Source: a virus
IMG/VR virus record: IMGVR_UViG_3300001282_000007
Coordinates: 35,520 to 99,519 of that record
Length of the DNA stretch: 64,000 nt
Strand: one strand, 5' to 3'
Within the stretch, counting starts at the first letter, position 1, and the number at the start of each line of letters is the position of its first letter. The notes beneath the pieces were generated by a model that saw only the letters and a program-made list of their open reading frames with translations, was not told where the DNA came from and searched no databases. The translations under genes and the position numbers were made by a program. Below are positions 13,141 through 38,231 of this stretch, piece after piece.

Positions 13141-13341
13141 CTAGGCCATTCTATCTATGTTTTGTCCCGCACGGTTCATTCTACGATTCATTTCAATTCT
13201 TGCTTGTTCATCAACTTTGGCATCGGCCTGTACACGTCGTTCTTCTAGTCTAAGTTCTTCGTGACGCTTGTCCACCTTTTTGATTTCCATCTGTCGATAC
13301 ACTTCTGCATTTTGTGCAGATATTCTGCTGACTTCTGTCAT
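13141..13341 (-). CDS. Hypothetical charged helical protein, 66 aa
   Basis: Almost the whole sequence is a charged amphipathic helix rich in Arg, Glu and Gln, likely a coiled coil. No family is recognised. It starts within the last codon of the DNA ligase (4-nt overlap), so it is translated with the ligase. Confidence 0.62.
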   Translation of the reverse strand: MTEVSRISAQNAEVYRQMEIKKVDKRHEELRLEERRVQADAKVDEQARIEMNRRMNRAGQNIDRMA

Positions 13342-14705
13342 AGTTTTTCTCCTGCTTCAAATCCACGAAAGCGTACAAAGCGCGGAAATCTCAATGAGTA
13401 TGATCCGTCTTGGTTTTGTGTGACTGCGTCCGCTTCGACTTCAACCACGTCACCAAGTAGCTCATTCCGACTGGCCCAATACTCATCACGAAGAGTATCG
13501 CTAAACCCACTGCCAACATTAACGCAAATTCTACGGTCATCATCAACTCCTTCACAAATTATAGCACCCAACCGGCCCTGATTGCGACCGGTACCTTCTT
13601 CAAAACCCACAATATTAAGATCAACTGTGATTGTGGGTTTCCATTTCATCCAAAAACTAGATCGCTTGCACTCATATGGTGCGCCAAGATCCTTGATCAT
13701 GATACCTTCAAATCCGTTGGCCACAGCATCCTGTGCATATCGATTCATGATGTCATGCCCTTCGGCTGTGTCCAGATCCACAGTGATACCGTCCATGAGA
13801 CGCAGACAATCTGTAGCATCAAACCGTGCTCGAGATCCTGTTAAAATATCAAGTCGCTTGCTCTGTTGTGCATTATAGTGTCCTTCTTGAAAACTGTCAA
13901 GTGGAATGATATCAAACACATGATACACCATGTCCGTGGTTTCGGCATTTGTTTTGCGTTGTGCCTGCCGCATGAGTTGTTGAAAGCTGGCACCTACAAT
14001 CTCGCCGTCCAGCACATATCGTCCGCCAAACGCACCAATCAGTTTGCGGTTGGCAGCAATGGCTTCGGCCACGTGCGGAAAGTTTTCAAACGGCTTGCCA
14101 TTGCGGCTGTACAGTGTAACACTGGCACCTTGTACCACTGCCAGAACTCGCACACCATCCAGTTTGACCTCCAGGCGTTTGATGCCTTTCATCTTGGCCG
14201 GACGATCAGTTGAATCTTGCGCCAGCTGGCAGGTAAAGGTAGGTATCTTCCAGGATGTTTTGCCCAGAACCTTGTTGAGTGTTTTCTCACTGATGCCGCA
14301 GCGCAGGTCCTTGATCAAGACTCGTCTACACATGCCATTCCACTGCTCCGAATCAAACAGTTCACTCACTTGTTCAATGCGATCTCTAGCAGCATGCCCG
14401 GTTACTCCGCGAGTTCTCAAGTCCTCACACAAGCCCCAGAATATAGGCCACGGGTTGGGCTGTCCGGTTAGACCCTCAGTCTCCGGCACCTGGCGAACAT
14501 TGTACACATAGAAAGGATTGTATGCCAGGTAACAGTTGAACAAAAAACCCTGTGCGCCGGCACTGCCCAATTTTGAAGCCATCAAGGCTTTTTCAATCAC
14601 TCGTTCTTTGTGCAAGCGGCTGTCGCTGGATTCAAGGTCGCGAATCCAGTCAGCTACCACTACGTGTTTCCAAAACTCATTGTTGTCAAAGTCAATGTCA
14701 TGCAT
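13338..14705 (-). CDS. ATP-dependent DNA ligase
   Basis: The enzyme seals nicks through a lysyl-AMP intermediate. The nucleotidyltransferase core shows motif I KLDG (VKLDGVRVL, near 178-187), motif Ia/II (SRNGKPFENFP), motif III (LDGEIVG), motif IV (FEGIMIKD) and motif V (WMKWKP). A C-terminal OB-fold part (about 345-455) has the GRLGAIICEG segment. The N-terminal about 150 residues form a helical DNA-binding domain. At 455 aa it is similar in size to T4 ligase and longer than T7 ligase. GGAG lies about 8 nt before the ATG. Confidence 0.92.
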   Translation of the reverse strand: MHDIDFDNNEFWKHVVVADWIRDLESSDSRLHKERVIEKALMASKLGSAGAQGFLFNCYLAYNPFYVYNVRQVPETEGLTGQPNPWPIFWGLCEDLRTRGVTGHAARDRIEQVSELFDSEQWNGMCRRVLIKDLRCGISEKTLNKVLGKTSWKIPTFTCQLAQDSTDRPAKMKGIKRLEVKLDGVRVLAVVQGASVTLYSRNGKPFENFPHVAEAIAANRKLIGAFGGRYVLDGEIVGASFQQLMRQAQRKTNAETTDMVYHVFDIIPLDSFQEGHYNAQQSKRLDILTGSRARFDATDCLRLMDGITVDLDTAEGHDIMNRYAQDAVANGFEGIMIKDLGAPYECKRSSFWMKWKPTITVDLNIVGFEEGTGRNQGRLGAIICEGVDDDRRICVNVGSGFSDTLRDEYWASRNELLGDVVEVEADAVTQNQDGSYSLRFPRFVRFRGFEAGEKL

Positions 14706-29642: not shown

Positions 29643-30084
29643 TTGAGTTTCCTCGTAGTTGCCAGTATTTAGCCAAATTTATACATTTTGTCAACTCTTG
29701 TTCCAGCAGTTGACTTTGGTCTTGTCGGTAGGATACTTTGGTTATTACAGTTTCCCAGGCAGTTCCCGACATACGATCTGCAATGTTCTTACGGATGTAA
29801 ATATCATTGCGCAATCGTGTGAGTGATTGATCTAGCTCTTGTATTTGTCTAGCAAGATTAAAATAGTTTAATCTGTCGGCTATGCACCAGGCAAGTGCAG
29901 ATTTAGTAGTGCTAAATTTGCCCACAGCATCGTCTCTTATGGAAACGTCAAATCCCGGATCTCTGGGCTGTATTGTGTATTTGCCAAAAGCACGATATTT
30001 TTCCCCGTCTTCTACAATGACGTTTTCCAGCAGATGAGGCAGTTCTCTTTCGGCCAGGGCGGCCAATTTGCGGCTGGCTTTCAT
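29593..30084 (-). CDS. Hypothetical protein, 163 aa
   Basis: The ATG at 30084 overlaps the upstream stop; a longer reading is unlikely. A beta-rich N-terminal domain (about 30-80: YTIQPRDPGFDVSIRDDAVG) is followed by a long helical part (FNLARQIQELDQSLTRLRNDIY). The C-terminal about 15 residues overlap the start of the next gene by 50 nt in another frame. No family is named. Confidence 0.62.
   Translation of the reverse strand: MKASRKLAALAERELPHLLENVIVEDGEKYRAFGKYTIQPRDPGFDVSIRDDAVGKFSTTKSALAWCIADRLNYFNLARQIQELDQSLTRLRNDIYIRKNIADRMSGTAWETVITKVSYRQDQSQLLEQELTKCINLAKYWQLRGNSNETKRTGRNTPHTTNR
29666..29673 (-). promoter_or_regulatory. Late-like element GCTAAATA
   Basis: 24 nt before the ATG at 29642, with GAGGAAAC as ribosome site. 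It lies inside the 3' end of the 163-aa gene. Confidence 0.5.
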
Positions 30085-30341
30085 TTGAATACGTAGTGTG
30101 ATAACAACCAACCAACAGTGGCCAACAAGAACCCAATAGATCCAAGTCCCCAGTTTATCAATTGATTGTTTCGATTGTCCACAATTTTATGCATCATGGC
30201 ATGAACTTCTTCTGTCATGTCTTTTAGTCGACTGATAGCAGAATTGGCAGAATCTAGTTGCAGTTCTAGATGGCGATAACGTTCGGCGCAGAGCTCTACA
30301 TGCGCTTCCAGGCTCTTCTTTTCGATTTCTGTTGTGTCCAT
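30081..30341 (-). CDS. Small coiled-coil membrane protein, 86 aa
   Basis: A charged amphipathic helix (1-58, heptad-like) leads to a single C-terminal transmembrane helix (NWGLGSIGFLLATVGWLLSHYVF, about 63-85). This is a tail-anchored layout. Function unknown; a lysis or virion-linked role is possible. CATAAATA ends 4 nt before the ATG and no ribosome site is present. Confidence 0.62.
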   Translation of the reverse strand: MDTTEIEKKSLEAHVELCAERYRHLELQLDSANSAISRLKDMTEEVHAMMHKIVDNRNNQLINWGLGSIGFLLATVGWLLSHYVFK

Positions 30342-30344
30342 GAA

Positions 30345-30755
30345 TTATTTATGGCCTTTTGGATAGAACCAAATGTTCACGTCTGGTTGTAGTAGTGTGG
30401 TCAGTTGTTGCTGAACATAGTTGATGATTGGAACGCCGCGGCATGCCTGTTTGAGCAAGCCCACTGGATCTTCATCGAGTCTGAACACATCATCAAACTC
30501 TGTTTCAAACTCAAATTCCCAACGACCGTTTTGCATTCGTATGTTAGATATGTGCTGCGGCTGTGTGTACAGTCCTATCAATTGCAATATAGTTTCCCAG
30601 TTGCGTTGTTGATTTCTACTGCTGTTCCAGGATTCAAAATTGGTTATTGATTGATCTGCTCGGTCCACAAACGGCAAGACGCTTGTTCGAAAATGTCCTG
30701 TAACACCAGTGGGTCTACAATCAAAATCAGTCAATACACAAATACTATATGCCAT
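30345..30755 (-). CDS. Hypothetical virion-type protein, 136 aa
   Basis: MAYSICVLTDFDCRPTG starts a mixed alpha/beta protein with an aromatic, acidic middle (EFEFETEFDDVFRLDED) and a C-terminal FYPKG. It resembles uncharacterised proteins near structural genes of T4-like cyanophages. CGTAAATA ends 4 nt before the ATG with no Shine-Dalgarno. Confidence 0.62.
   Translation of the reverse strand: MAYSICVLTDFDCRPTGVTGHFRTSVLPFVDRADQSITNFESWNSSRNQQRNWETILQLIGLYTQPQHISNIRMQNGRWEFEFETEFDDVFRLDEDPVGLLKQACRGVPIINYVQQQLTTLLQPDVNIWFYPKGHK
30346..30353 (-). promoter_or_regulatory. Late-like element CATAAATA, 4 nt before a start codon
   Basis: Precedes the ATG at 30341 directly and overlaps the stop codon of the 136-aa gene. 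No Shine-Dalgarno is present. Confidence 0.4.
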
Positions 30756-30759
30756 GGAG

Positions 30760-30767
30760 TATTTACG
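30760..30767 (-). promoter_or_regulatory. Late-like element CGTAAATA, 4 nt before a start codon
   Basis: Precedes the ATG at 30755, just after the terminator at 30771-30803. An independent start site after a terminator is required here, which supports the promoter call. Confidence 0.5.
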
Positions 30768-30770
30768 GCC

Positions 30771-30803
30771 AAAAAAAAGCCCCGGAAATAAACCAGGGCC
30801 TTG
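30771..30803 (-). terminator. Rho-independent terminator after the 143-aa virion gene
   Basis: On the minus strand AAGGCCCTGG pairs with CCGGGGCTTT (10 bp with two G-U pairs) around a 7-nt loop, followed by a run of U. Insulates the gene upstream and suggests high expression of it. Confidence 0.85.
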
Positions 30804-30824
30804 ATTTTTTACTACTATCTAGTA

Positions 30825-31256
30825 TTAGACAGGAGCAAAGTTGGTAGCAGCAGTAGTGAACACTGCATTGCCGGCTGCTGAACTCAATTCCAAGTTCTGA
30901 CCACCAGATGCCACTGTGGCACTGGTATTAGCAGTGGTCAACAATGTGGCAGCAGTGTATGCGCCTGTTGGATAGATAGCCAAGTTCAACACTGTTGGTG
31001 CTGCTGGACTAACTTGATACATGGCCACAGTGCCCTTGGTCTGAATAGCTTGCAACACATTGTTGATATAGCCATTCACGTTTGCTGATGTAGTCAACGC
31101 ACCATTGGCAACCAAGCTGAAGAAATCCAGCTTGGGACCTTGGAAGTTAACTGAACCAGTTGCAGCAATGTTAGCTGTTCCGCCAATGTTGCCATTGGCT
31201 GTATCCATGTTGAATACTGGTTGATTCGTGCCGTTTGTTTTTGTAAATCCTGACAT
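30825..31256 (-). CDS. Probable abundant virion protein, 143 aa
   Basis: A small, nearly charge-free protein rich in Ala, Thr, Asn, Gly and Val with alternating beta-type residues (ALTTSANVNGYINNVLQAI). It is bracketed by a late-like promoter with an AAGGAG ribosome site and a strong terminator, as a single-gene transcript. This layout suits a capsid decoration or tail-surface protein; the function is not proven. Confidence 0.66.
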   Translation of the reverse strand: MSGFTKTNGTNQPVFNMDTANGNIGGTANIAATGSVNFQGPKLDFFSLVANGALTTSANVNGYINNVLQAIQTKGTVAMYQVSPAAPTVLNLAIYPTGAYTAATLLTTANTSATVASGGQNLELSSAAGNAVFTTAATNFAPV

Positions 31257-31296
31257 TTAAAGTCTCCTTAAGTAAGTGGGCTACTTGCCCTACTTT

Positions 31297-31304
31297 TATT
31301 TATC
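31297..31304 (-). promoter_or_regulatory. Late-like element GATAAATA upstream of the 143-aa virion gene
   Basis: 40 nt before the ATG at 31256, with AAGGAG close to the start codon. Confidence 0.5.
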
Positions 31305-31318
31305 GATCTTGATAAAAA

Positions 31319-33268
31319 TTAAGGGCTTGGTGGGTTGTTTCGAGCTTTGTTTCTGGCTGTGAAATCAAAGCGATTTACTGCTTTACCATAGCCTGCAGGG
31401 GTTGCAAACACCCATCCTTCGTTGCCGGGCACTTGTGCATCCAGCTTGGTCAACAGGTCCAGTTTCAGATCATGCAGCAATTCAAACAACACAAAGGCAG
31501 CAGCCAAGGCTTGTTCATTGCTGGTAGGGCTGCGCAGATATTGCAGAATGTTGTTGTACTTTTGCGGTGTTTGAGTCTGTTGCAGCCAGGCTAGAAATCC
31601 CGGCACAAGATCACTAAAATTGCCAGTGTATGCTGCATGGTTTGGATCCACACGTTTGTTGATGTAGTCTATTGCCAGCTTGGCCAAGTCAGTTATTTTC
31701 ATGGCACGTAGTTCAGCAGGATTAAACAAGGTGTTCATGACTGCTCGGTTTTGGCGCAACAGTGACTTGATTTGTTTGACAATGGGATCTGCTGTTTCCA
31801 CAGGCTTAGCATATATGGGTTCGATCAACAACAGGCCGGGCACAGGATTAAACTTGACTCTGCTGAGTGGCTGCTTGGCAGCGCCTGCATCTTCGTACAT
31901 GGTATGCACAGCAACACCAACTTGAGATCCTGCAATGTCCTTGCCCAGTTTGCTGGCAACTGGAATTCTGTATTCCACAGTGTTTGGTTTGAATTCCACC
32001 AGACCTGCGTTTATTTCCCAGGGCTTTTCGGGACTGTACAACAGGTCGCCCTTGACATAGCCACGAAAGTTTTCTGGAGTAGCAGCTTCCAAATATGGCC
32101 AGATACTCTGATACACTGGCAACAGTGTCTGCACTCGGGTGGCCTGATTGCCTTTGGCAGCAGCATTGGCATCACGCTGTGCCATGTGGTCAGCCACAGC
32201 ATCGGTACTGGTAAACAGGCCATCATATCCAACTGCACCGAATCCTGCATCATCTGTGAGCACAAATTCTCCGGTTTCGGGCTTGCGACCAAATACCACA
32301 GCAGGCTTTCCGTCCCATTTGACTGACCCTTGTTTGGGCTGTTTGTAAAAAGAATCAGCAATGGCCAGCGCACGGTCAACACCCGCGGTTCCTTGACGGA
32401 ACACATAGTCTTCCAGATGCTCAATACCCTTGGCTTGGCCGCCCACCGCAGTGGGCTCTTGTTCGTATATCTGATACAAGGGCTTGGCTTCGATCAATTG
32501 CTGCATGCCTTGATTTACTATTCTGTCCCGTAGTCTGGCCAAGAAGTTAACATCATTTTCTTTTACAGGCATTTCGGGTTCTTTAAGGCCTTCACGGGCT
32601 AGATATTCACGAAAGTCTTTGAGCTTGGCGTCACGGTCGGGGTCCTTTGCTAGAGCAGCATAAATTGATTCTACATTCTTTAGTGCAGCTCGGTCCTGAG
32701 TGCCGCCCAGCAATACCGCAGACACATAGTCTGGATCTTGACCGCCTCGGACCAGTTCATTTGTGGTGCGGCTGATCATGCCATTTGCGCCCACCTTGAG
32801 TCCGGCTTGTTTGGCCAAGCTGCTCAGCAGCACATTGCGATTCATGCCCTTGTAGGCTGATCCTTCAGATCCACCATAATAGAATGTGCCCCAATCCAGG
32901 TTGGGAAAGAACATAAAATCAGTCTGTACAAATCCTTTTTCGGGATCTCCGCCGATGGGAGTTCTAAGATGCACTTCGCCTGATTTACGAACCCATTCAC
33001 GAGGGTCGAGTCCTTGACTGGTGGCCCATTGTGTTAGCCCGGCTGCCACCTGTTCTTTGGTTGTTTCTCCAAGATCCACAGCTAGATCCAGGTCACCAGA
33101 TGTGGCCTTGCGGCCAGTGCTGCCCAACCAACGATCTTCAGGAAATTCAATACCTGTAACTTGTTCCACCCAGGCAATGGTAGCGGCAACGTCAGCTTGA
33201 TTGATGCGTTGTGTCAGTGGTTGGCCTTGGGGGTCTTTGAATACATTGCCGCCTTCGAAAATTTTCAT
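31319..33268 (-). CDS. Nucleotidyltransferase fused to ligase-like domain, 649 aa
   Basis: The chosen ATG at 33268 follows AGGATCAAG; an 18-codon longer reading is less likely. The N-terminal domain shows the polymerase-beta nucleotidyltransferase pattern: GS (49-50), then DLD (Asp 59 and 61) and QTDFMFF with Asp 117 as the third metal ligand. The second half starts with GIEHLEDYVF and carries SVKWDGKPAVVFG, with Lys 317 in a KxDG motif like DNA/RNA ligases; cyanophages have a related unnamed domain (DUF6267-like, from memory). C-terminal helices follow. Co-occurrence suggests nucleotide transfer to and joining of nucleic-acid ends, which is inference. Confidence 0.7.
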   Translation of the reverse strand: MKIFEGGNVFKDPQGQPLTQRINQADVAATIAWVEQVTGIEFPEDRWLGSTGRKATSGDLDLAVDLGETTKEQVAAGLTQWATSQGLDPREWVRKSGEVHLRTPIGGDPEKGFVQTDFMFFPNLDWGTFYYGGSEGSAYKGMNRNVLLSSLAKQAGLKVGANGMISRTTNELVRGGQDPDYVSAVLLGGTQDRAALKNVESIYAALAKDPDRDAKLKDFREYLAREGLKEPEMPVKENDVNFLARLRDRIVNQGMQQLIEAKPLYQIYEQEPTAVGGQAKGIEHLEDYVFRQGTAGVDRALAIADSFYKQPKQGSVKWDGKPAVVFGRKPETGEFVLTDDAGFGAVGYDGLFTSTDAVADHMAQRDANAAAKGNQATRVQTLLPVYQSIWPYLEAATPENFRGYVKGDLLYSPEKPWEINAGLVEFKPNTVEYRIPVASKLGKDIAGSQVGVAVHTMYEDAGAAKQPLSRVKFNPVPGLLLIEPIYAKPVETADPIVKQIKSLLRQNRAVMNTLFNPAELRAMKITDLAKLAIDYINKRVDPNHAAYTGNFSDLVPGFLAWLQQTQTPQKYNNILQYLRSPTSNEQALAAAFVLFELLHDLKLDLLTKLDAQVPGNEGWVFATPAGYGKAVNRFDFTARNKARNNPPSP

Positions 33269-33284
33269 CTTGATCCTGTTGAGT

Positions 33285-33533
33285 TTATGTGCTTGTTGGA
33301 GTTTTTCTAACGGTTCTAGCAAAACGTCCTGCGTCCCGGGTACGGATAGAATTCAGCAGTTTGCGTGTGAGATTTTCTGCTTGCTCGGGTGTGTATGTAG
33401 CATCAATCTGCTCCAGCAAGTTGATAGCACTGGCTATGACATTTGATGCCCGACTCTCAATCACTAGATCGCGTTCACGCTCGATATACATGGAATCTAA
33501 TTCTTCTAACAAACTACGGGTGCGTTTTTGCAT
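33285..33533 (-). CDS. Hypothetical helical protein, 82 aa
   Basis: Charged and helical throughout (LLEELDSMYIERERDLVIES; INLLEQIDATYTPEQAENLTRKLL), probably a coiled-coil dimer. No family is recognised. It follows a late-like element and precedes the fusion protein by 16 nt. Confidence 0.62.
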   Translation of the reverse strand: MQKRTRSLLEELDSMYIERERDLVIESRASNVIASAINLLEQIDATYTPEQAENLTRKLLNSIRTRDAGRFARTVRKTPTST

Positions 33534-33558
33534 GATTTTTATTGCAGACCTTTGACAT

Positions 33559-33566
33559 TATTTATC
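33559..33566 (-). promoter_or_regulatory. Late-like element GATAAATA
   Basis: 25 nt before the ATG at 33533, in the gap after the SGNH-like gene. Confidence 0.5.
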
Positions 33567-33587
33567 GGTTTTTGATTTCAACTAGAG

Positions 33588-34298
33588 TTAGTTAGACTTG
33601 AGTCGATTATTTATTTCTGCCCAGATTGATTCTCTATCCAGATCATATGGAATCCACTGTGTTTGATTGATTAGTGACTCTAATTCTTTTTGTAAATTTG
33701 GATCAATAGTAACATTGATCTGAGGAATAATTTGTTCTATTAACCAATGAAAATGTACAATCGGCGACGGTTGCACTTCTGCTTGCCTAGTTGTGCTAAA
33801 TTGATTATTTTTACTAAAAAAATTTTCTGAGTCTGTGCTTGTATGAACTATTTGGCAATTTAAATTTTCAGCTGTTTGCGATACTAGTGCATGATATACT
33901 TGTTGTCTACGATTGTGTTGGCTTTGTTGTACATAAAGGCTGTGGTAATGCTGGACCTCCTGAACTTTGCTAGCACTACTTAACCACCAGTTTTTTCCTT
34001 GCAAATCTACATTGACGTTGAAATGATACGTTGGGTCGTTGGCAATAATCTCTTGCCAGGAGTCATCTTCGATTATCTTATCAAATCTGTCAGCGGTCGG
34101 CCACTGAAAGATTACTATGCTATCATGCATCTGATCTAATAGATCAACAAATCCTGAGACTAAAAATTCAGTACCTGCTCCAATTCCTGCGGTATTGATT
34201 ACTTGATGTTCGGGCACCAGCGTTTGTAAAATCTGAGGCCACTCTGGCCATATATGCCCGGTTGCAAATCCGTCACCAAAACAAAAGATTTTCTTCAT
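33588..34298 (-). CDS. SGNH-hydrolase-like protein, 236 aa
   Basis: The N-terminus MKKIFCFGDGFATG resembles block I of SGNH/GDSL hydrolases (GDS), with Gly replacing the usual Ser, so the nucleophile may be missing. A GIGAGTEF stretch could be block II. The C-terminal His is uncertain. Base composition is AT-rich relative to the neighbours. The paralogous gene at 37500 keeps GDSW. A substrate-binding rather than catalytic role is possible. Confidence 0.52.
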   Translation of the reverse strand: MKKIFCFGDGFATGHIWPEWPQILQTLVPEHQVINTAGIGAGTEFLVSGFVDLLDQMHDSIVIFQWPTADRFDKIIEDDSWQEIIANDPTYHFNVNVDLQGKNWWLSSASKVQEVQHYHSLYVQQSQHNRRQQVYHALVSQTAENLNCQIVHTSTDSENFFSKNNQFSTTRQAEVQPSPIVHFHWLIEQIIPQINVTIDPNLQKELESLINQTQWIPYDLDRESIWAEINNRLKSN

Positions 34299-34299
34299 A

Positions 34300-35106
34300 T
34301 CAAAATCTTTGATCAAAAGTTTTTAAGTGTTGATCCACAATGTTCCATATCTGACAGGTGGATGTAGGATAATTATTATTATCAAACAACTCTCCATCAA
34401 ATATTCCAATGGACTTTGACAACAAACTATTGATTAATGCCTGAGATATTTCATTACTAAAAAATTCAATATTGTTTCCTGCAATTGCGGCATGTGCCAA
34501 GTGTTTGCATTCTTTGTAATATTGCCATCCTTGGTTTCTAGTTAAAAATTCTTCCAATAAATCACTTAGCTCCCGGTCGGGTACGAATGTTATTTCTAAA
34601 AAATTGGCCAGGCGATACAGTTCATTATAAAATTCCACTAGATCAAACAAACTTTCCATGTTAAATTCAAAAACTACTGCGTCGGGCCAGCGCCAATTAT
34701 CTGGCAAAGAATATCCATCAACAGTTGAATTAAATTTAGCATACCACTCATTTCTAAGTTTTACAGGACTATGTCTCACTGATTCTGGGGTTAGTTTTAT
34801 TTTTTTTTCTAAAGGTATATCGCCGGCTCGGCTCATGACATTGATTTGATATATCCAGTTGGCCCAGTCCTGACTAATGTTGATTCTAACTACCTTGGTT
34901 GGAGTATTTTGTGATATATCAAACTCAGTATAATGTGCAGCTTCTACTATCCTGTGCGCCATGTAATTTTTGTCATTGCGAATTTGATGGCAAGATCCGT
35001 GCTCAGTAAAAATATTATGTACCCTTGGACCCTTGTGTAGCCAGGTGTTTATCACGTATTCTAAAAAATGTCCATGGCTTCCAGAAAAAAAATCTAGGTA
35101 TATCAT
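34300..35106 (-). CDS. P-loop-like protein, 268 aa (possible sulfotransferase-like)
   Basis: The start IYLDFFSGSHGHFLEYVIN contains GSHGHF, like the 5'-phosphosulfate loop of sulfotransferases, and a conserved-looking RINISQDWANW segment comes near 74-84. The rest is AT-rich in codon use. It overlaps the helicase gene by 4 nt. The family call is tentative; no substrate is indicated. Confidence 0.5.
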   Translation of the reverse strand: MIYLDFFSGSHGHFLEYVINTWLHKGPRVHNIFTEHGSCHQIRNDKNYMAHRIVEAAHYTEFDISQNTPTKVVRINISQDWANWIYQINVMSRAGDIPLEKKIKLTPESVRHSPVKLRNEWYAKFNSTVDGYSLPDNWRWPDAVVFEFNMESLFDLVEFYNELYRLANFLEITFVPDRELSDLLEEFLTRNQGWQYYKECKHLAHAAIAGNNIEFFSNEISQALINSLLSKSIGIFDGELFDNNNYPTSTCQIWNIVDQHLKTFDQRF

Positions 35107-36539
35107 GCAGCTTTGATTTGCCCCAGCAACTGCTTGAGTTTGTTGCTTTGTACATCTGCTGTGACTCGACCACTCAAAGGATCATGACCGTCTCGTGGTC
35201 TGGGCTTTTCCCAGGGCTGCGAACTACTGCCGCTGTCAGCAGGCGCGACTTGACTGCGGGCCTTAATTGAGTCCATGATTGAACTTTGTGGTTTGTTATG
35301 ACCGTTTTCGTCCCCACCTTCATCAGTAATGCGCATGGTTTCAATGTTGTACTCCAAATCAATTTTTTGACCAACGCCGGTCGAGCTTCGAGATTTCATA
35401 CACTGTATCTGATACTTGCCACGCTCTTTCATGGAGCGACTGGTAAAGATACCAAACACATTGTCTGCTGTGTTGATTTTACTGATACCACCTGAAATGT
35501 GGCTGTGATCAAATTCCATTTCTTCCACTGCTGATCTGTTCAACTGACTTGCTGTTACCAACAACACGCCCAGTTCCTTAGCCAGGTTACGCAGCTCTTC
35601 CGATACATACTTGTCTTTCACAAACAAGTCATTGGGACTAACTTTAGCACTCACAGGCATGACCAAGTCAAGATAATCCACCATCACAAAGTCCACTTTG
35701 ATGCCTGTTTGTATCTGTACTTCTTTTAGATATGCACGGATATCATTCACATTGCTCTGTGCCGGCAAGCCTTTCACACGATACTGTCCGGATTTCTTGG
35801 CCACCATCTTGACCTTGAGTTCTGTTGAGTCAATGTCACGGCGTATTTCTTTGGTGCTCATGTTTGTGAGCATGGCGTCTGTTCTCAAACTTGTGAGTTC
35901 TTCTGATAGTTCCAGTGTGATATACACGCCACTCATGCCCTGCTGCAACCAGTTCAGGGCAATGTTCATCATGACTAAGGATTTACCCGAGCCCGAACCA
36001 CCTGCAAAGATGTTGAGTTCACCACGACTGAATCCACCATACAGCAGTCGATCCATTTGCGGCCAACCTGTGCTAACTTGTCCACCTGAATTGAAATACT
36101 TGTTGATCCTGGCTGCTGGATCTGCAAAGTAATCTGTACCCATGTCCTTGGTCAGGGAAATCTGCACAGCATCCTTGATCAGTTTTTCCACAGGATCATA
36201 GTCGCCTTTTTCCAGCAAGTCTGCTGCTTTTAGAATGGCACGTTCTAGTTCCTGGCGTCGTGTAAATGCTTCAAACTCAGTCATGAACCAGTCATAGTGA
36301 CCTTCGTTCAAGTCTGGCACTGCATTCAACTTGATGCCTGTGGCCGCAGCGATCTGTGCTCGATCTGGCAGAGTCTTGAACTGTTCTGAATGCTCCTTGA
36401 TAAACGCCGCAGCGGTTCTTAGATTGCGATCAAAATTTTCTGGATTGTAGATGTTCTGCACCCGAACGTAGCTGGCGGCGTCCTCCAGCATCATTTCTAG
36501 GAATAGTTTCTGAACATCAGTGCTGTAGTCTTTTAACAA
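35103..36539 (-). CDS. Replicative DNA helicase, DnaB/T4 gp41-like
   Basis: The hexameric 5'-3' helicase of the phage replisome. The RecA-like core has Walker A GGSGSGKS (about residue 184 from the chosen start), a FVMVDYLDL Walker B, TASQLNRS (motif H3-like) and a GGISKINTAD loop. The N-terminal helical domain is intact. The start is not certain: TTG at 36539 with CGAAAG upstream is chosen, while TTG at 36590 overlaps the primase by 74 nt and ATG at 36494 cuts the first helix. Primase and helicase genes lie side by side as in T4-like phages. Confidence 0.9.
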   Translation of the reverse strand: MLKDYSTDVQKLFLEMMLEDAASYVRVQNIYNPENFDRNLRTAAAFIKEHSEQFKTLPDRAQIAAATGIKLNAVPDLNEGHYDWFMTEFEAFTRRQELERAILKAADLLEKGDYDPVEKLIKDAVQISLTKDMGTDYFADPAARINKYFNSGGQVSTGWPQMDRLLYGGFSRGELNIFAGGSGSGKSLVMMNIALNWLQQGMSGVYITLELSEELTSLRTDAMLTNMSTKEIRRDIDSTELKVKMVAKKSGQYRVKGLPAQSNVNDIRAYLKEVQIQTGIKVDFVMVDYLDLVMPVSAKVSPNDLFVKDKYVSEELRNLAKELGVLLVTASQLNRSAVEEMEFDHSHISGGISKINTADNVFGIFTSRSMKERGKYQIQCMKSRSSTGVGQKIDLEYNIETMRITDEGGDENGHNKPQSSIMDSIKARSQVAPADSGSSSQPWEKPRPRDGHDPLSGRVTADVQSNKLKQLLGQIKAA

Positions 36540-37497
36540 GTTGTTTCTTTCGTAATTCAATTTTGATCTTGGATGTTTCTCTAGCGTCAATTATAGTTAG
36601 CAATGTGCCCAGGCGCCCATACAGTTTGACAGCATCATTCACATCCTTGACTTCCCGGGGCCATGCGGGCATGCTCACAGCCCAGCCCAGTTCCACAGCA
36701 CGATCCACCAGTTCCATACCTGCTAGATCTTGATCGGGTACCACTGTGATTTCTCGACCAAGATTGCGAATCAATCTAGCTTGAGCATCACTTATGGTGT
36801 TGTGCATCAAGGCAACACCGCCAATGCTAAGTGCATCAAAGATACCTTCAGTCACAATCACCTGAGTCCAGTCAGGACGCAACAGGTCTGTGCCAAACAC
36901 ATAGCCTGGCTGCATGTCATTGATGTAGCGTGGATTACGATCATCCAGAAATCTAACAGTGTGTCCCACAATGCTGTTGTGATGTGTGAATGGTATGATC
37001 ACTTGATCACGGGCGGGCCAGGCTTCTGGATTTGTTTGTGTCATCACAGGATAATCATCTGGCACACATCTTGATCTCACATAGTCGCGATGCAGTCCTG
37101 TGCTACCAATCAGTTCAGCGAATGGCGGCAGGTCTCGTTCTTCAAACTTGATATCTGCTAGAATATCCACGGTGCGTTGTCTATCATCTAGAATGCCGTG
37201 TATGCTCCGGTGCCGCAGACTTTCAAGATTCAACATTTCTATTTCACGTTCGGGCACACCCATCCAGCTCAAGAGCCTGCGGGCCTTGAAACTTACAGTA
37301 CGGCCAAGGATAAAGCTAGCGGTGTAGTTGCAGTTGAAGCAGTGATAACTCCAGCCCTGTTCAGATGTTTTGATTCCGCCGCGGCTTCTGCGATCTGGTG
37401 TGTCGCCGTTGTGTTCACAACACACAGCATTAAAACTGATCCACCCCGATGCACTAGATTTTCGTTTGGCGGGTAAGTATCCAAGAATGTCGAGCAT
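36517..37497 (-). CDS. DNA primase, DnaG/T4 gp61-like
   Basis: The 326-aa protein has an N-terminal zinc ribbon with CCEH (near 26-29) and CFNC (53-56), an RNA-polymerase-type middle, and a TOPRIM domain with the Glu in VIVTEGIFDALS (near 210) and the DxD-type PDQDLAG (near 248). It makes RNA primers for the lagging strand with the adjacent helicase. The Toprim is complete. Confidence 0.9.
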   Translation of the reverse strand: MLDILGYLPAKRKSSASGWISFNAVCCEHNGDTPDRRSRGGIKTSEQGWSYHCFNCNYTASFILGRTVSFKARRLLSWMGVPEREIEMLNLESLRHRSIHGILDDRQRTVDILADIKFEERDLPPFAELIGSTGLHRDYVRSRCVPDDYPVMTQTNPEAWPARDQVIIPFTHHNSIVGHTVRFLDDRNPRYINDMQPGYVFGTDLLRPDWTQVIVTEGIFDALSIGGVALMHNTISDAQARLIRNLGREITVVPDQDLAGMELVDRAVELGWAVSMPAWPREVKDVNDAVKLYGRLGTLLTIIDARETSKIKIELRKKQLVKRLQH

Positions 37498-37499
37498 TC

Positions 37500-38231
37500 T
37501 TACATTGTAACATCATCTATGGTAGAAATCAACTTTTCTGCAATCATTTTATGCCCTATTTCGTTGGGATGACCTCCGGGCATGACCAGTTCTCGTTGTT
37601 GATTGTCGGGATGGTTACGAAACCACATGGTAGTAGAGAAGCCGGGCCATATCTGGGTGGGCAGATCCAGTTTGACATCTTCAGGCATGATCTGGAACTG
37701 CATCATTTGAAGATTGCGTCTAGCAGCAATACCATCAAAGCTCAGCAGGGTTTGCTGATAATTTAGTTTTGCTAGTTTTGAACAGTTGGTCAGCACCAGC
37801 TGTTGTTTGACCATGTTTCTAAATTCCTGCGGAACCACACTGCTGCCGTATTCCACCCAGGTTGAGTGTATGAATCGATTCCAAGGAGGATCGTTGGCAT
37901 AGCTCACATGATTGGGATTGTAAAAGCTCAGACGATCTGAGTCTGTGTGTCCAATCAAGATCAGGCACTGTTCTGGCTCGGGCTCGTGATCCAACCACCA
38001 TAAAAATGTCCACATGGAACTTTGCATGCTGCCTCCGGCAATTCCAAAGTTTTCCATGGGCACACCGTAGTGTTGTGCTGTCAGCCCCAGAAAGTTGTGA
38101 CTTTCACGATAGGCGTTGTTTTGATGCCAGCATGTGTGTGCATCTGAATGTTGTCGTTGTAGTTCTGGATCCAGTAGTTCATCGCCGAACATCCAGGAAT
38201 CACCAAACCCTACAATTTTTTTAAATTTCAT
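37500..38231 (-). CDS. SGNH/GDSL-like hydrolase, 243 aa
   Basis: Block I is VGFGDSWMFG (8-17) with the Ser nucleophile, block II a GIAGGSM (near 63-69), block III GHTDSDR (near 94-100, with Asp), and block V HPNEIGHKMI near the C-terminus with the catalytic His. These enzymes deacylate lipids or sugars; phage copies may de-O-acetylate glycans. It overlaps the baseplate-like gene by 4 nt and precedes the primase by 2 nt. Confidence 0.7.
   Translation of the reverse strand: MKFKKIVGFGDSWMFGDELLDPELQRQHSDAHTCWHQNNAYRESHNFLGLTAQHYGVPMENFGIAGGSMQSSMWTFLWWLDHEPEPEQCLILIGHTDSDRLSFYNPNHVSYANDPPWNRFIHSTWVEYGSSVVPQEFRNMVKQQLVLTNCSKLAKLNYQQTLLSFDGIAARRNLQMMQFQIMPEDVKLDLPTQIWPGFSTTMWFRNHPDNQQRELVMPGGHPNEIGHKMIAEKLISTIDDVTM

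What the first reader, a model, noticed from the sequence alone, without database searches (positions are those of the whole stretch)
31319..33268. Polymerase-beta nucleotidyltransferase domain fused to a KxDG ligase-like domain
One 649-aa protein carries a full GS...DLD...QTD triad (Asp 59, 61, 117) and, 200 residues later, KWDGKPAVVFG with Lys 317 in a ligase-type motif I. Ligase-like proteins of cyanophages are known without the first domain, as far as I recall. A single enzyme could add nucleotides to an RNA or DNA end and then join it, for example for tRNA repair against host anticodon nucleases.
Basis: partly seen in the sequence, partly recalled or inferred. Interest (0 to 1): 0.72.

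Follow-up and report, generated by a model that had tools for sequence, protein, structure and literature searches.

The report
Phage gap-filling polymerase–ligase fusion enzyme
A family of large freshwater phages makes one protein that joins a DNA-polymerase-X-like nucleotide-adding domain to a ligase-like sealing domain, most likely to fill and seal small gaps in nucleic acid; a similar two-in-one repair enzyme is proven in an algal giant virus, but I found no report of one in bacterial viruses.

Summary
The fusion is not a mis-join: 177 IMG/VR loci carry it as one ORF in a conserved gene order, and all parts are under purifying selection.

The N-domain is best described as a DNA-polymerase-X-like nucleotidyltransferase: the top 50 Foldseek hits are all Pol mu/lambda/beta/TdT, and a profile match beats all 200 shuffles. 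No Pfam family recognises it, and the lyase domain and YFTGS motif are missing. The C-domain is Pfam DUF6267. Its motifs I, III, IIIa, IV and V are invariant in 61 diverse sequences and its model (pLDDT 94) resembles nucleic-acid ligases, but it has no OB domain and carries a helical insert.

In jumbo phages (Atu_ph07, Phosso, PA5oct) the same N-domain is a separate gene beside a ligase-like gene. Elsewhere DUF6267 stands alone or pairs with an NMNAT-like domain.

The tRNA-repair idea is weakened: the contig already carries an RNA-ligase/kinase/phosphatase cassette beside 29 tRNAs, and a standard DNA ligase. I favour fill-and-seal DNA repair, possibly virion-delivered (conserved L-x-E|GG leader). 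The closest precedent is PgVPolX. Substrate and activity are untested.

The parts
31319..33268 (-). whole fusion gene, 649 aa, ATG at 33268, stop 31319-31321
   Evidence: conserved in 177 fused IMG/VR loci
33254..33268 (-). N-terminal leader MKIFE, putative prohead-protease-type site IFE|GG
   Evidence: 42 distinct leaders in homologues: P1 = E in 41, P3 = L/I in 39 of 40, P2 free; unfused jumbo-phage homologues start M-GG or M-SG at this point
32744..33253 (-). DNA-polymerase-X-like nucleotidyltransferase core, aa 6-175
   Evidence: AF2 + Foldseek: top 50 PDB hits all family X polymerases; hhalign versus PolX profile beats 200 shuffles
33086..33124 (-). GSTGRKATSGDLD, metal-binding Asp 59 and Asp 61
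   Evidence: D59/D61 invariant in A1 and A2
32918..32926 (-). QTD, third catalytic Asp 117
   Evidence: Q115/D117 invariant
32429..32743 (-). helical region and low-confidence linker, aa 176-280
   Evidence: AF2 pLDDT < 50 at aa 234-280
31322..32428 (-). DUF6267 / phrog_455 ligase-like covalent nucleotidyltransferase domain, aa 281-649
   Evidence: Pfam PF19782 3.2e-28, phrog_455 1.4e-24; model pLDDT 93.8, best PDB hits nucleic-acid ligases
32309..32320 (-). motif I K317-W-D-G
   Evidence: K, D and G invariant in 61 sequences
32036..32050 (-). motif III G407-D408-L-L-Y (Asp instead of the usual Glu)
   Evidence: D408 invariant in A4
31895..31906 (-). motif IIIa H455-T-M-Y
   Evidence: H455 invariant in A4
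31433..31888 (-). helical insert of about 150 aa between motifs IIIa and IV (aa 461-612)
   Evidence: A4 model secondary structure
31406..31420 (-). motif IV E617-G-W-V-F
   Evidence: E617, G618, V620 invariant in A4
31376..31384 (-). motif V K629-A-V
   Evidence: K629 invariant in A4; one close homologue (L052) has Asn
33285..33533 (-). 82-aa gene directly upstream, phrog_11854 (labelled virion structural), constant neighbour
   Evidence: present in 154 of 159 eligible fused loci; homologue Phosso gp444

Best explanation
The gene encodes a two-headed nucleic-acid repair enzyme. The N-terminal DNA-polymerase-X-like domain (Asp 59, 61, 117, two-metal chemistry) adds one or a few nucleotides to a 3' end at a gap or nick. 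The C-terminal DUF6267 domain then forms a Lys317-AMP, activates the 5'-phosphate and seals the nick. The substrate is most likely DNA: small gaps in the phage genome left by base damage, nuclease attack or replication. Shown here: conserved catalytic residues, fold resemblance of both halves, the fusion and its split-gene counterparts, and purifying selection. Inferred: catalytic activity, coupling of the two steps, and DNA as substrate.
For: N-domain: the top 50 PDB matches of the model are all Pol mu, lambda, TdT or beta (prob 0.77-1.00). The profile alignment to family X polymerases is collinear over GDxD, xD and part of the thumb, scoring 29.0 against a maximum of 21.6 in 200 column shuffles. 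C-domain: motifs I, III, IIIa, IV and V are invariant in 61 diverse members; the pLDDT 93.8 model finds ATP-dependent DNA ligases first, then RNA/tRNA ligases. Functional linkage: in Atu_ph07 and Phosso a KxDG ligase-like gene immediately precedes and overlaps the stand-alone N-domain gene; in PA5oct it lies three genes upstream, and that PA5oct ligase-like protein matches the DUF6267 model (BFVD, E 1.2e-5). Context: primase, DnaB (76/76 eligible fused loci), UvsW, UvsX, SSB, exonuclease. Median pairwise dN/dS is 0.06-0.16 in every part. Precedent: PgVPolX, a polymerase X-ligase fusion shown biochemically to fill and seal gapped DNA (PMC5537341). RNA repair is already served by another cassette in the same contig.
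Against: Foldseek E-values are modest (2e-3 and 2e-2) and TM-scores low (0.28 and 0.16 by target). No Pfam polymerase X domain matches, and the YFTGS motif and lyase domain are missing. The ligase domain has no OB fold, which classical DNA ligases need. The same phage has an ordinary OB-containing ATP DNA ligase (window 13338-14705). In other phages DUF6267 pairs with an NMNAT-like domain instead.
Confidence: 0.5

Rival explanations
1. RNA end-repair enzyme: the N-domain adds nucleotides to a cut RNA and the ligase domain, lacking an OB fold like T4 Rnl-type enzymes, joins it, for example in tRNA repair against anticodon nucleases.
For: No OB domain after motif V. The Atu_ph07 partner ligase is weakly RNA_ligase PF09414 (0.002) and is named RNA ligase in BFVD. 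The contig holds 29 tRNAs and a tmRNA.
Against: The contig has a separate Rnl1-type ligase + PNK-type kinase + phosphatase beside the tRNA array. The N-domain resembles polymerase X, not the CCA or poly(A) enzymes, in the fold search. The fusion sits in the replication block, far from the tRNAs.
Confidence: 0.2
2. Virion-packaged repair or host-takeover enzyme: the leader is a capsid-targeting/prohead-protease site (L-x-E|GG); the mature enzyme is packed in the head and ejected with the DNA to mend the incoming genome or modify a host target. This concerns delivery and can be true together with the best explanation.
For: Leader pattern P1 Glu, P3 Leu/Ile over 42 distinct leaders, with unfused homologues starting M-GG there. 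17 of 38 DUF6267-only proteins match a T4-CTS-like leader search, e.g. MKSFLSFISE|SK. The PA5oct N-domain homologue EST35_0231 is recorded as a structural protein by ESI-MS/MS. The contig has a cluster of MRASEFxxE-type proteins. [quoted passage not shown]
Against: No T4-like prohead protease or capsid found in four contigs (negatives not conclusive). A loose L-x-E N-terminus is not enriched genome-wide (26 versus 20-25 at internal offsets). The S-CREM2 DUF6267 protein gp87 is not in its virion proteome.
Confidence: 0.35
3. The DUF6267 domain is a ligase-fold nucleotidyl carrier that transfers NMP to something other than a nick (a protein, a small molecule or an RNA 5' end), and the N-domain is an NMP transferase as well, so the protein modifies a target.
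For: DUF6267 is alternatively fused to an NMNAT/cytidylyltransferase-like domain (L158; S-PM2 591-aa protein). No OB fold, large helical insert, and the phage already owns DNA and RNA ligases.
Against: All relevant fold matches are nucleic-acid ligases, not capping enzymes or AMPylators. The N-domain partner looks like a polymerase.
Confidence: 0.15

Closest known systems
PgVPolX of Phaeocystis globosa virus 16T (PMC5537341)
   Same: N-terminal family X polymerase core fused to a C-terminal ligase in a large DNA virus; shown to fill gaps and seal nicks in DNA.
   Different: PgVPolX is 1093 aa with an NAD+-dependent LigA-type ligase and a dRP-lyase domain; the phage protein has a DUF6267 ligase-like domain, no lyase domain and no OB domain. 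The two look like independent fusions.
DUF6267 (PF19782) / phrog_455 of T4-like cyanophages
   Same: Clear homologue of the C-terminal half, with the same invariant motifs.
   Different: Members outside this phage group lack the N-terminal nucleotidyltransferase; they stand alone or are linked or fused to a cytidylyltransferase/NMNAT-like domain. Pfam lists no function, and no paper in the library mentions the name.
Family X DNA polymerases (Pol beta, lambda, mu, TdT, bacterial PolX)
   Same: Best and only fold matches among the top 50; same triad layout and SGDxD context.
   Different: No 8-kDa lyase/HhH part, no conserved YFTGS, below any Pfam threshold.
Split ligase-like + nucleotidyltransferase gene pairs of Agrobacterium phage Atu_ph07, Sinorhizobium phage Phosso and Pseudomonas phage PA5oct
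   Same: Homologous N-domain, ligase-like gene adjacent (Atu_ph07, Phosso) or three genes away (PA5oct), next to primase/helicase genes.
   Different: Two separate genes; the ligase partners are too divergent to hit DUF6267 by HMM.
Bacterial LigD (NHEJ ligase-polymerase)
   Same: Polymerase and ligase joined in one chain for break repair (general knowledge).
   Different: The LigD polymerase is of the archaeo-eukaryotic primase family, not the Pol-beta superfamily, and LigD works with Ku.

Membership tests
Family X DNA polymerase | catalytic Asp triad GS..GDxD...xD | tested here: met
   D59, D61, D117 invariant including 25-28% identical homologues
Family X DNA polymerase | palm + thumb fold | tested here: inconclusive
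   Top 50 Foldseek hits all family X, prob up to 1.00, but E >= 2.4e-3 and TM about 0.28
Family X DNA polymerase | sequence-profile relation to family X | tested here: inconclusive
   No Pfam match; hhalign score 29.0 versus shuffle maximum 21.6, P 0.0014, probability only 17%
Family X DNA polymerase | YFTGS motif and 8-kDa lyase/HhH region | tested here: not met
   Only about 45 residues precede the palm motif; the FYYGGS stretch is variable among homologues
Covalent nucleotidyltransferase (ligase) superfamily | motif I KxDG | tested here: met
   Invariant in 61 sequences
Covalent nucleotidyltransferase (ligase) superfamily | motifs III, IIIa, IV, V | tested here: met
   D408, H455, E617/G618/V620, K629 invariant in A4
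Covalent nucleotidyltransferase (ligase) superfamily | ligase adenylation-domain fold | tested here: inconclusive
   pLDDT 93.8 model; best PDB hits are DNA and RNA ligases, prob 0.89, E 0.02
ATP-dependent DNA ligase (classical) | OB-fold domain with motif VI | tested here: not met
   Chain ends one helix after motif V
DUF6267 / PF19782 | score above the curated cut-off | tested here: met
   99.6 bits against a cut-off of 27
PgVPolX-type fusion | LigA-type NAD+-dependent ligase half | tested here: not met
   The ligase half is DUF6267; no DNA_ligase_aden match anywhere in the contigs
PgVPolX-type fusion | gap filling and nick sealing activity | not testable with these tools
   needs purified protein
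T4-type internal (capsid-targeted) protein | N-terminal leader ending in L/I-x-E before A/G/S | tested here: met
T4-type internal (capsid-targeted) protein | prohead protease encoded by the phage | tested here: inconclusive
   PF03420 and a cyanophage gp21 query found nothing in the contigs, with no positive control for either search

The most novel reading that the evidence does not exclude
A new class of phage fill-and-seal repair enzyme, independent of the algal-virus PgVPolX, built from a lyase-less polymerase-X-like domain and a previously unassigned ligase family (DUF6267). It is made with a cleavable capsid-targeting leader, packed in the virion and injected, so that gaps in the incoming genome are mended before phage gene expression.
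Probability: 0.2. Interest if true: 0.8.

Novelty: new variant of a known kind. Interest (0 to 1): 0.6.

Why it matters
It would give function to DUF6267, a family found in hundreds of cyanophage genomes with no assigned role, and would show that DNA viruses of bacteria and of algae arrived separately at the same polymerase-ligase fusion. The split-gene versions in cultured Pseudomonas and Agrobacterium phages make both the activity and the proposed virion delivery directly testable.

Tried and rejected
Plain sequence searches against the PDB found nothing meaningful. NCBIfam: none. Pfam on the eight N-domain members gave only unrelated sub-threshold hits. Bacterial/archaeal genome contigs hold no relative by the pattern search. 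Single-sequence profile comparison does not separate polymerase X from E. coli Cca/PcnB, so only the profile score was used. T4 gp21 and gp23 queries found nothing. Genome-wide enrichment of L-x-E N-termini: none. A mis-assembly origin of the fusion was rejected on the conserved gene order and purifying selection. The cyanophage virion proteome check was negative for DUF6267. Rfam: nothing in 30000-37600. The two split loci, L046 (in-frame stop) and L223 (overlapping frames), may be sequencing errors and were not built on. No paper on a phage polymerase X-ligase fusion was found in the open library, but most subscription papers are not held.

Full report
Observation. The ORF is on the minus strand, ATG 33268 to stop 31319, 649 aa; the + strand reading is full of stops. 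Motifs III, IIIa, IV and V follow K317 at D408, H455, E617-G618 and K629, so the stated refuter is not met.

The fusion is real. IMG/VR holds at least 430 pattern-matched relatives. Among the loci fetched, 182 carry both domains in one frame and 177 of these were used for gene order: DnaB upstream in 76 of 76 eligible loci, the 82-aa gene (phrog_11854) in 154 of 159, and downstream genes in 136/138, 122/123, 103/104 and 85/86. Some of these loci overlap or are near-identical, so the counts are not independent. Median pairwise dN/dS is 0.06-0.16 in every part of the protein. A chance ORF or a mis-join is therefore excluded.

N-domain. It matches no family library. An AlphaFold2 model from 20 homologues (mean pLDDT 70) gave 50 of 50 top PDB matches to family X polymerases, prob 0.77-1.00, best E 2.4e-3. 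TM-scores are low (about 0.28), so this is a resemblance, not an assignment. A profile comparison with four family X sequences aligned the GDxD, third Asp and part of the thumb collinearly, scoring 29.0 against a maximum of 21.6 in 200 column shuffles. The lyase domain is missing and the YFTGS motif is not conserved, so I call it polymerase-X-like and do not file it as a member.

C-domain. Pfam DUF6267, 99.6 bits against a cut-off of 27, and phrog_455, both without assigned function. Across 61 diverse members the ligase motif residues are invariant. The model is confident (pLDDT 93.8). Its best PDB matches are ATP-dependent DNA ligases and then RNA/tRNA ligases, at weak E-values (0.02 and above), probably because of a helical insert of about 150 residues between motifs IIIa and IV. 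There is no OB domain after motif V.

Relatives with the halves apart. Jumbo phages Atu_ph07, Phosso and PA5oct carry the N-domain as a separate gene (25-28% identity). In Atu_ph07 and Phosso the immediately preceding, overlapping gene is a KxDG ligase-like ORF; in PA5oct it lies three genes upstream. The PA5oct ligase-like protein matches the DUF6267 model in BFVD at E 1.2e-5. The order SSB, UvsX, UvsW, primase then ligase/nucleotidyltransferase is shared between PA5oct and the window. In T4-like cyanophages DUF6267 stands alone next to a cytidylyltransferase-like gene or is fused to it (L158; S-PM2).

What it probably does. Two halves that recur together, next to replication genes, one resembling a gap-filling polymerase and the other a ligase, fit fill-and-seal repair. 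PgVPolX of an algal giant virus does exactly this on DNA (PMC5537341). The window overlaps a 261,673-base contig at 99.995-100% identity over 45 kb. That contig also encodes an ordinary ATP DNA ligase with OB domain (window 13338-14705) and, beside 29 tRNAs and a tmRNA, an Rnl1-type RNA ligase, a PNK-type kinase and a metallophosphatase. General DNA sealing and tRNA repair are therefore already covered, which weakens the tRNA-repair reading and points to a specialised role. The lack of an OB domain keeps RNA, or a non-ligase transfer, possible.

Possible virion delivery. The fused proteins begin M-(0-8 residues)-L/I-x-E-G-G. Over 42 distinct leaders P1 is Glu in 41 and P3 is Leu/Ile in 39 of 40, with P2 free, which fits a T4-type prohead-protease site (the L/I-x-E rule itself is general knowledge, not looked up here). 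The unfused jumbo homologues start with Met directly at that GG/SG, and the PA5oct one is recorded as found in virions by mass spectrometry. Seventeen of 38 DUF6267-only proteins match a T4-CTS-like leader search, and the contig has a cluster of MRASEFxxE-type proteins. Against this: no prohead protease was found (without positive controls), there is no genome-wide enrichment, and the S-CREM2 DUF6267 protein is absent from that phage's virion proteome. I rate this possible, not shown.

Verdict. Observation confirmed; architecture interpretation supported; tRNA-repair function not supported. New variant of a known kind (viral polymerase X-ligase fusions), with the ligase half from a family that has had no assigned function.

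Noticed in passing
L250:11469-13355 (contig G001 91469-93355, the 261-kb contig overlapping the window) and L249/L250 tRNA array: RNA-repair cassette: Rnl1-type RNA ligase (PF09511 4e-12), PNK-type kinase (AAA_33) and metallophosphatase, beside 29 tRNA genes and a tmRNA gene.
   Followed up: partly
window 13338-14705 (-): Ordinary ATP-dependent DNA ligase with OB domain, close to PDB 6rau (384 bits); present in all four related contigs searched.
   Followed up: yes
L252/L253 (contig G001 130-157 kb): Cluster of proteins starting MRASEFIHE, MRASEFVSE, MRATEFVTE, MRSSEFLNE, MNINDIITE: T4 capsid-targeting-like leaders in a phage without a detectable T4-like head.
   Followed up: partly
L158:3217-4989, and cyanophage loci L082-L088: DUF6267 ligase-like domain fused or adjacent to an NMNAT/cytidylyltransferase-like (HxGH) domain; could recycle NMN to NAD+ if the ligase used NAD+, untested.
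   Followed up: no
L082:5154-5933, L084:5028-5945, L087:3647-4666: Genes next to DUF6267/ligase genes that by eye look like PD-(D/E)xK-type nucleases (no Pfam hit).
   Followed up: no
L086:6558-8401 (Atu_ph07): Two paralogous genes with leaders MRLFQLLE and MRWHQLIE downstream of the split pair; by eye they could be ADP-ribosyltransferase-like injected proteins.
   Followed up: no
L046 and L223: Two loci where the fusion is split by a stop or a frame change; natural splits or sequencing errors.
   Followed up: no
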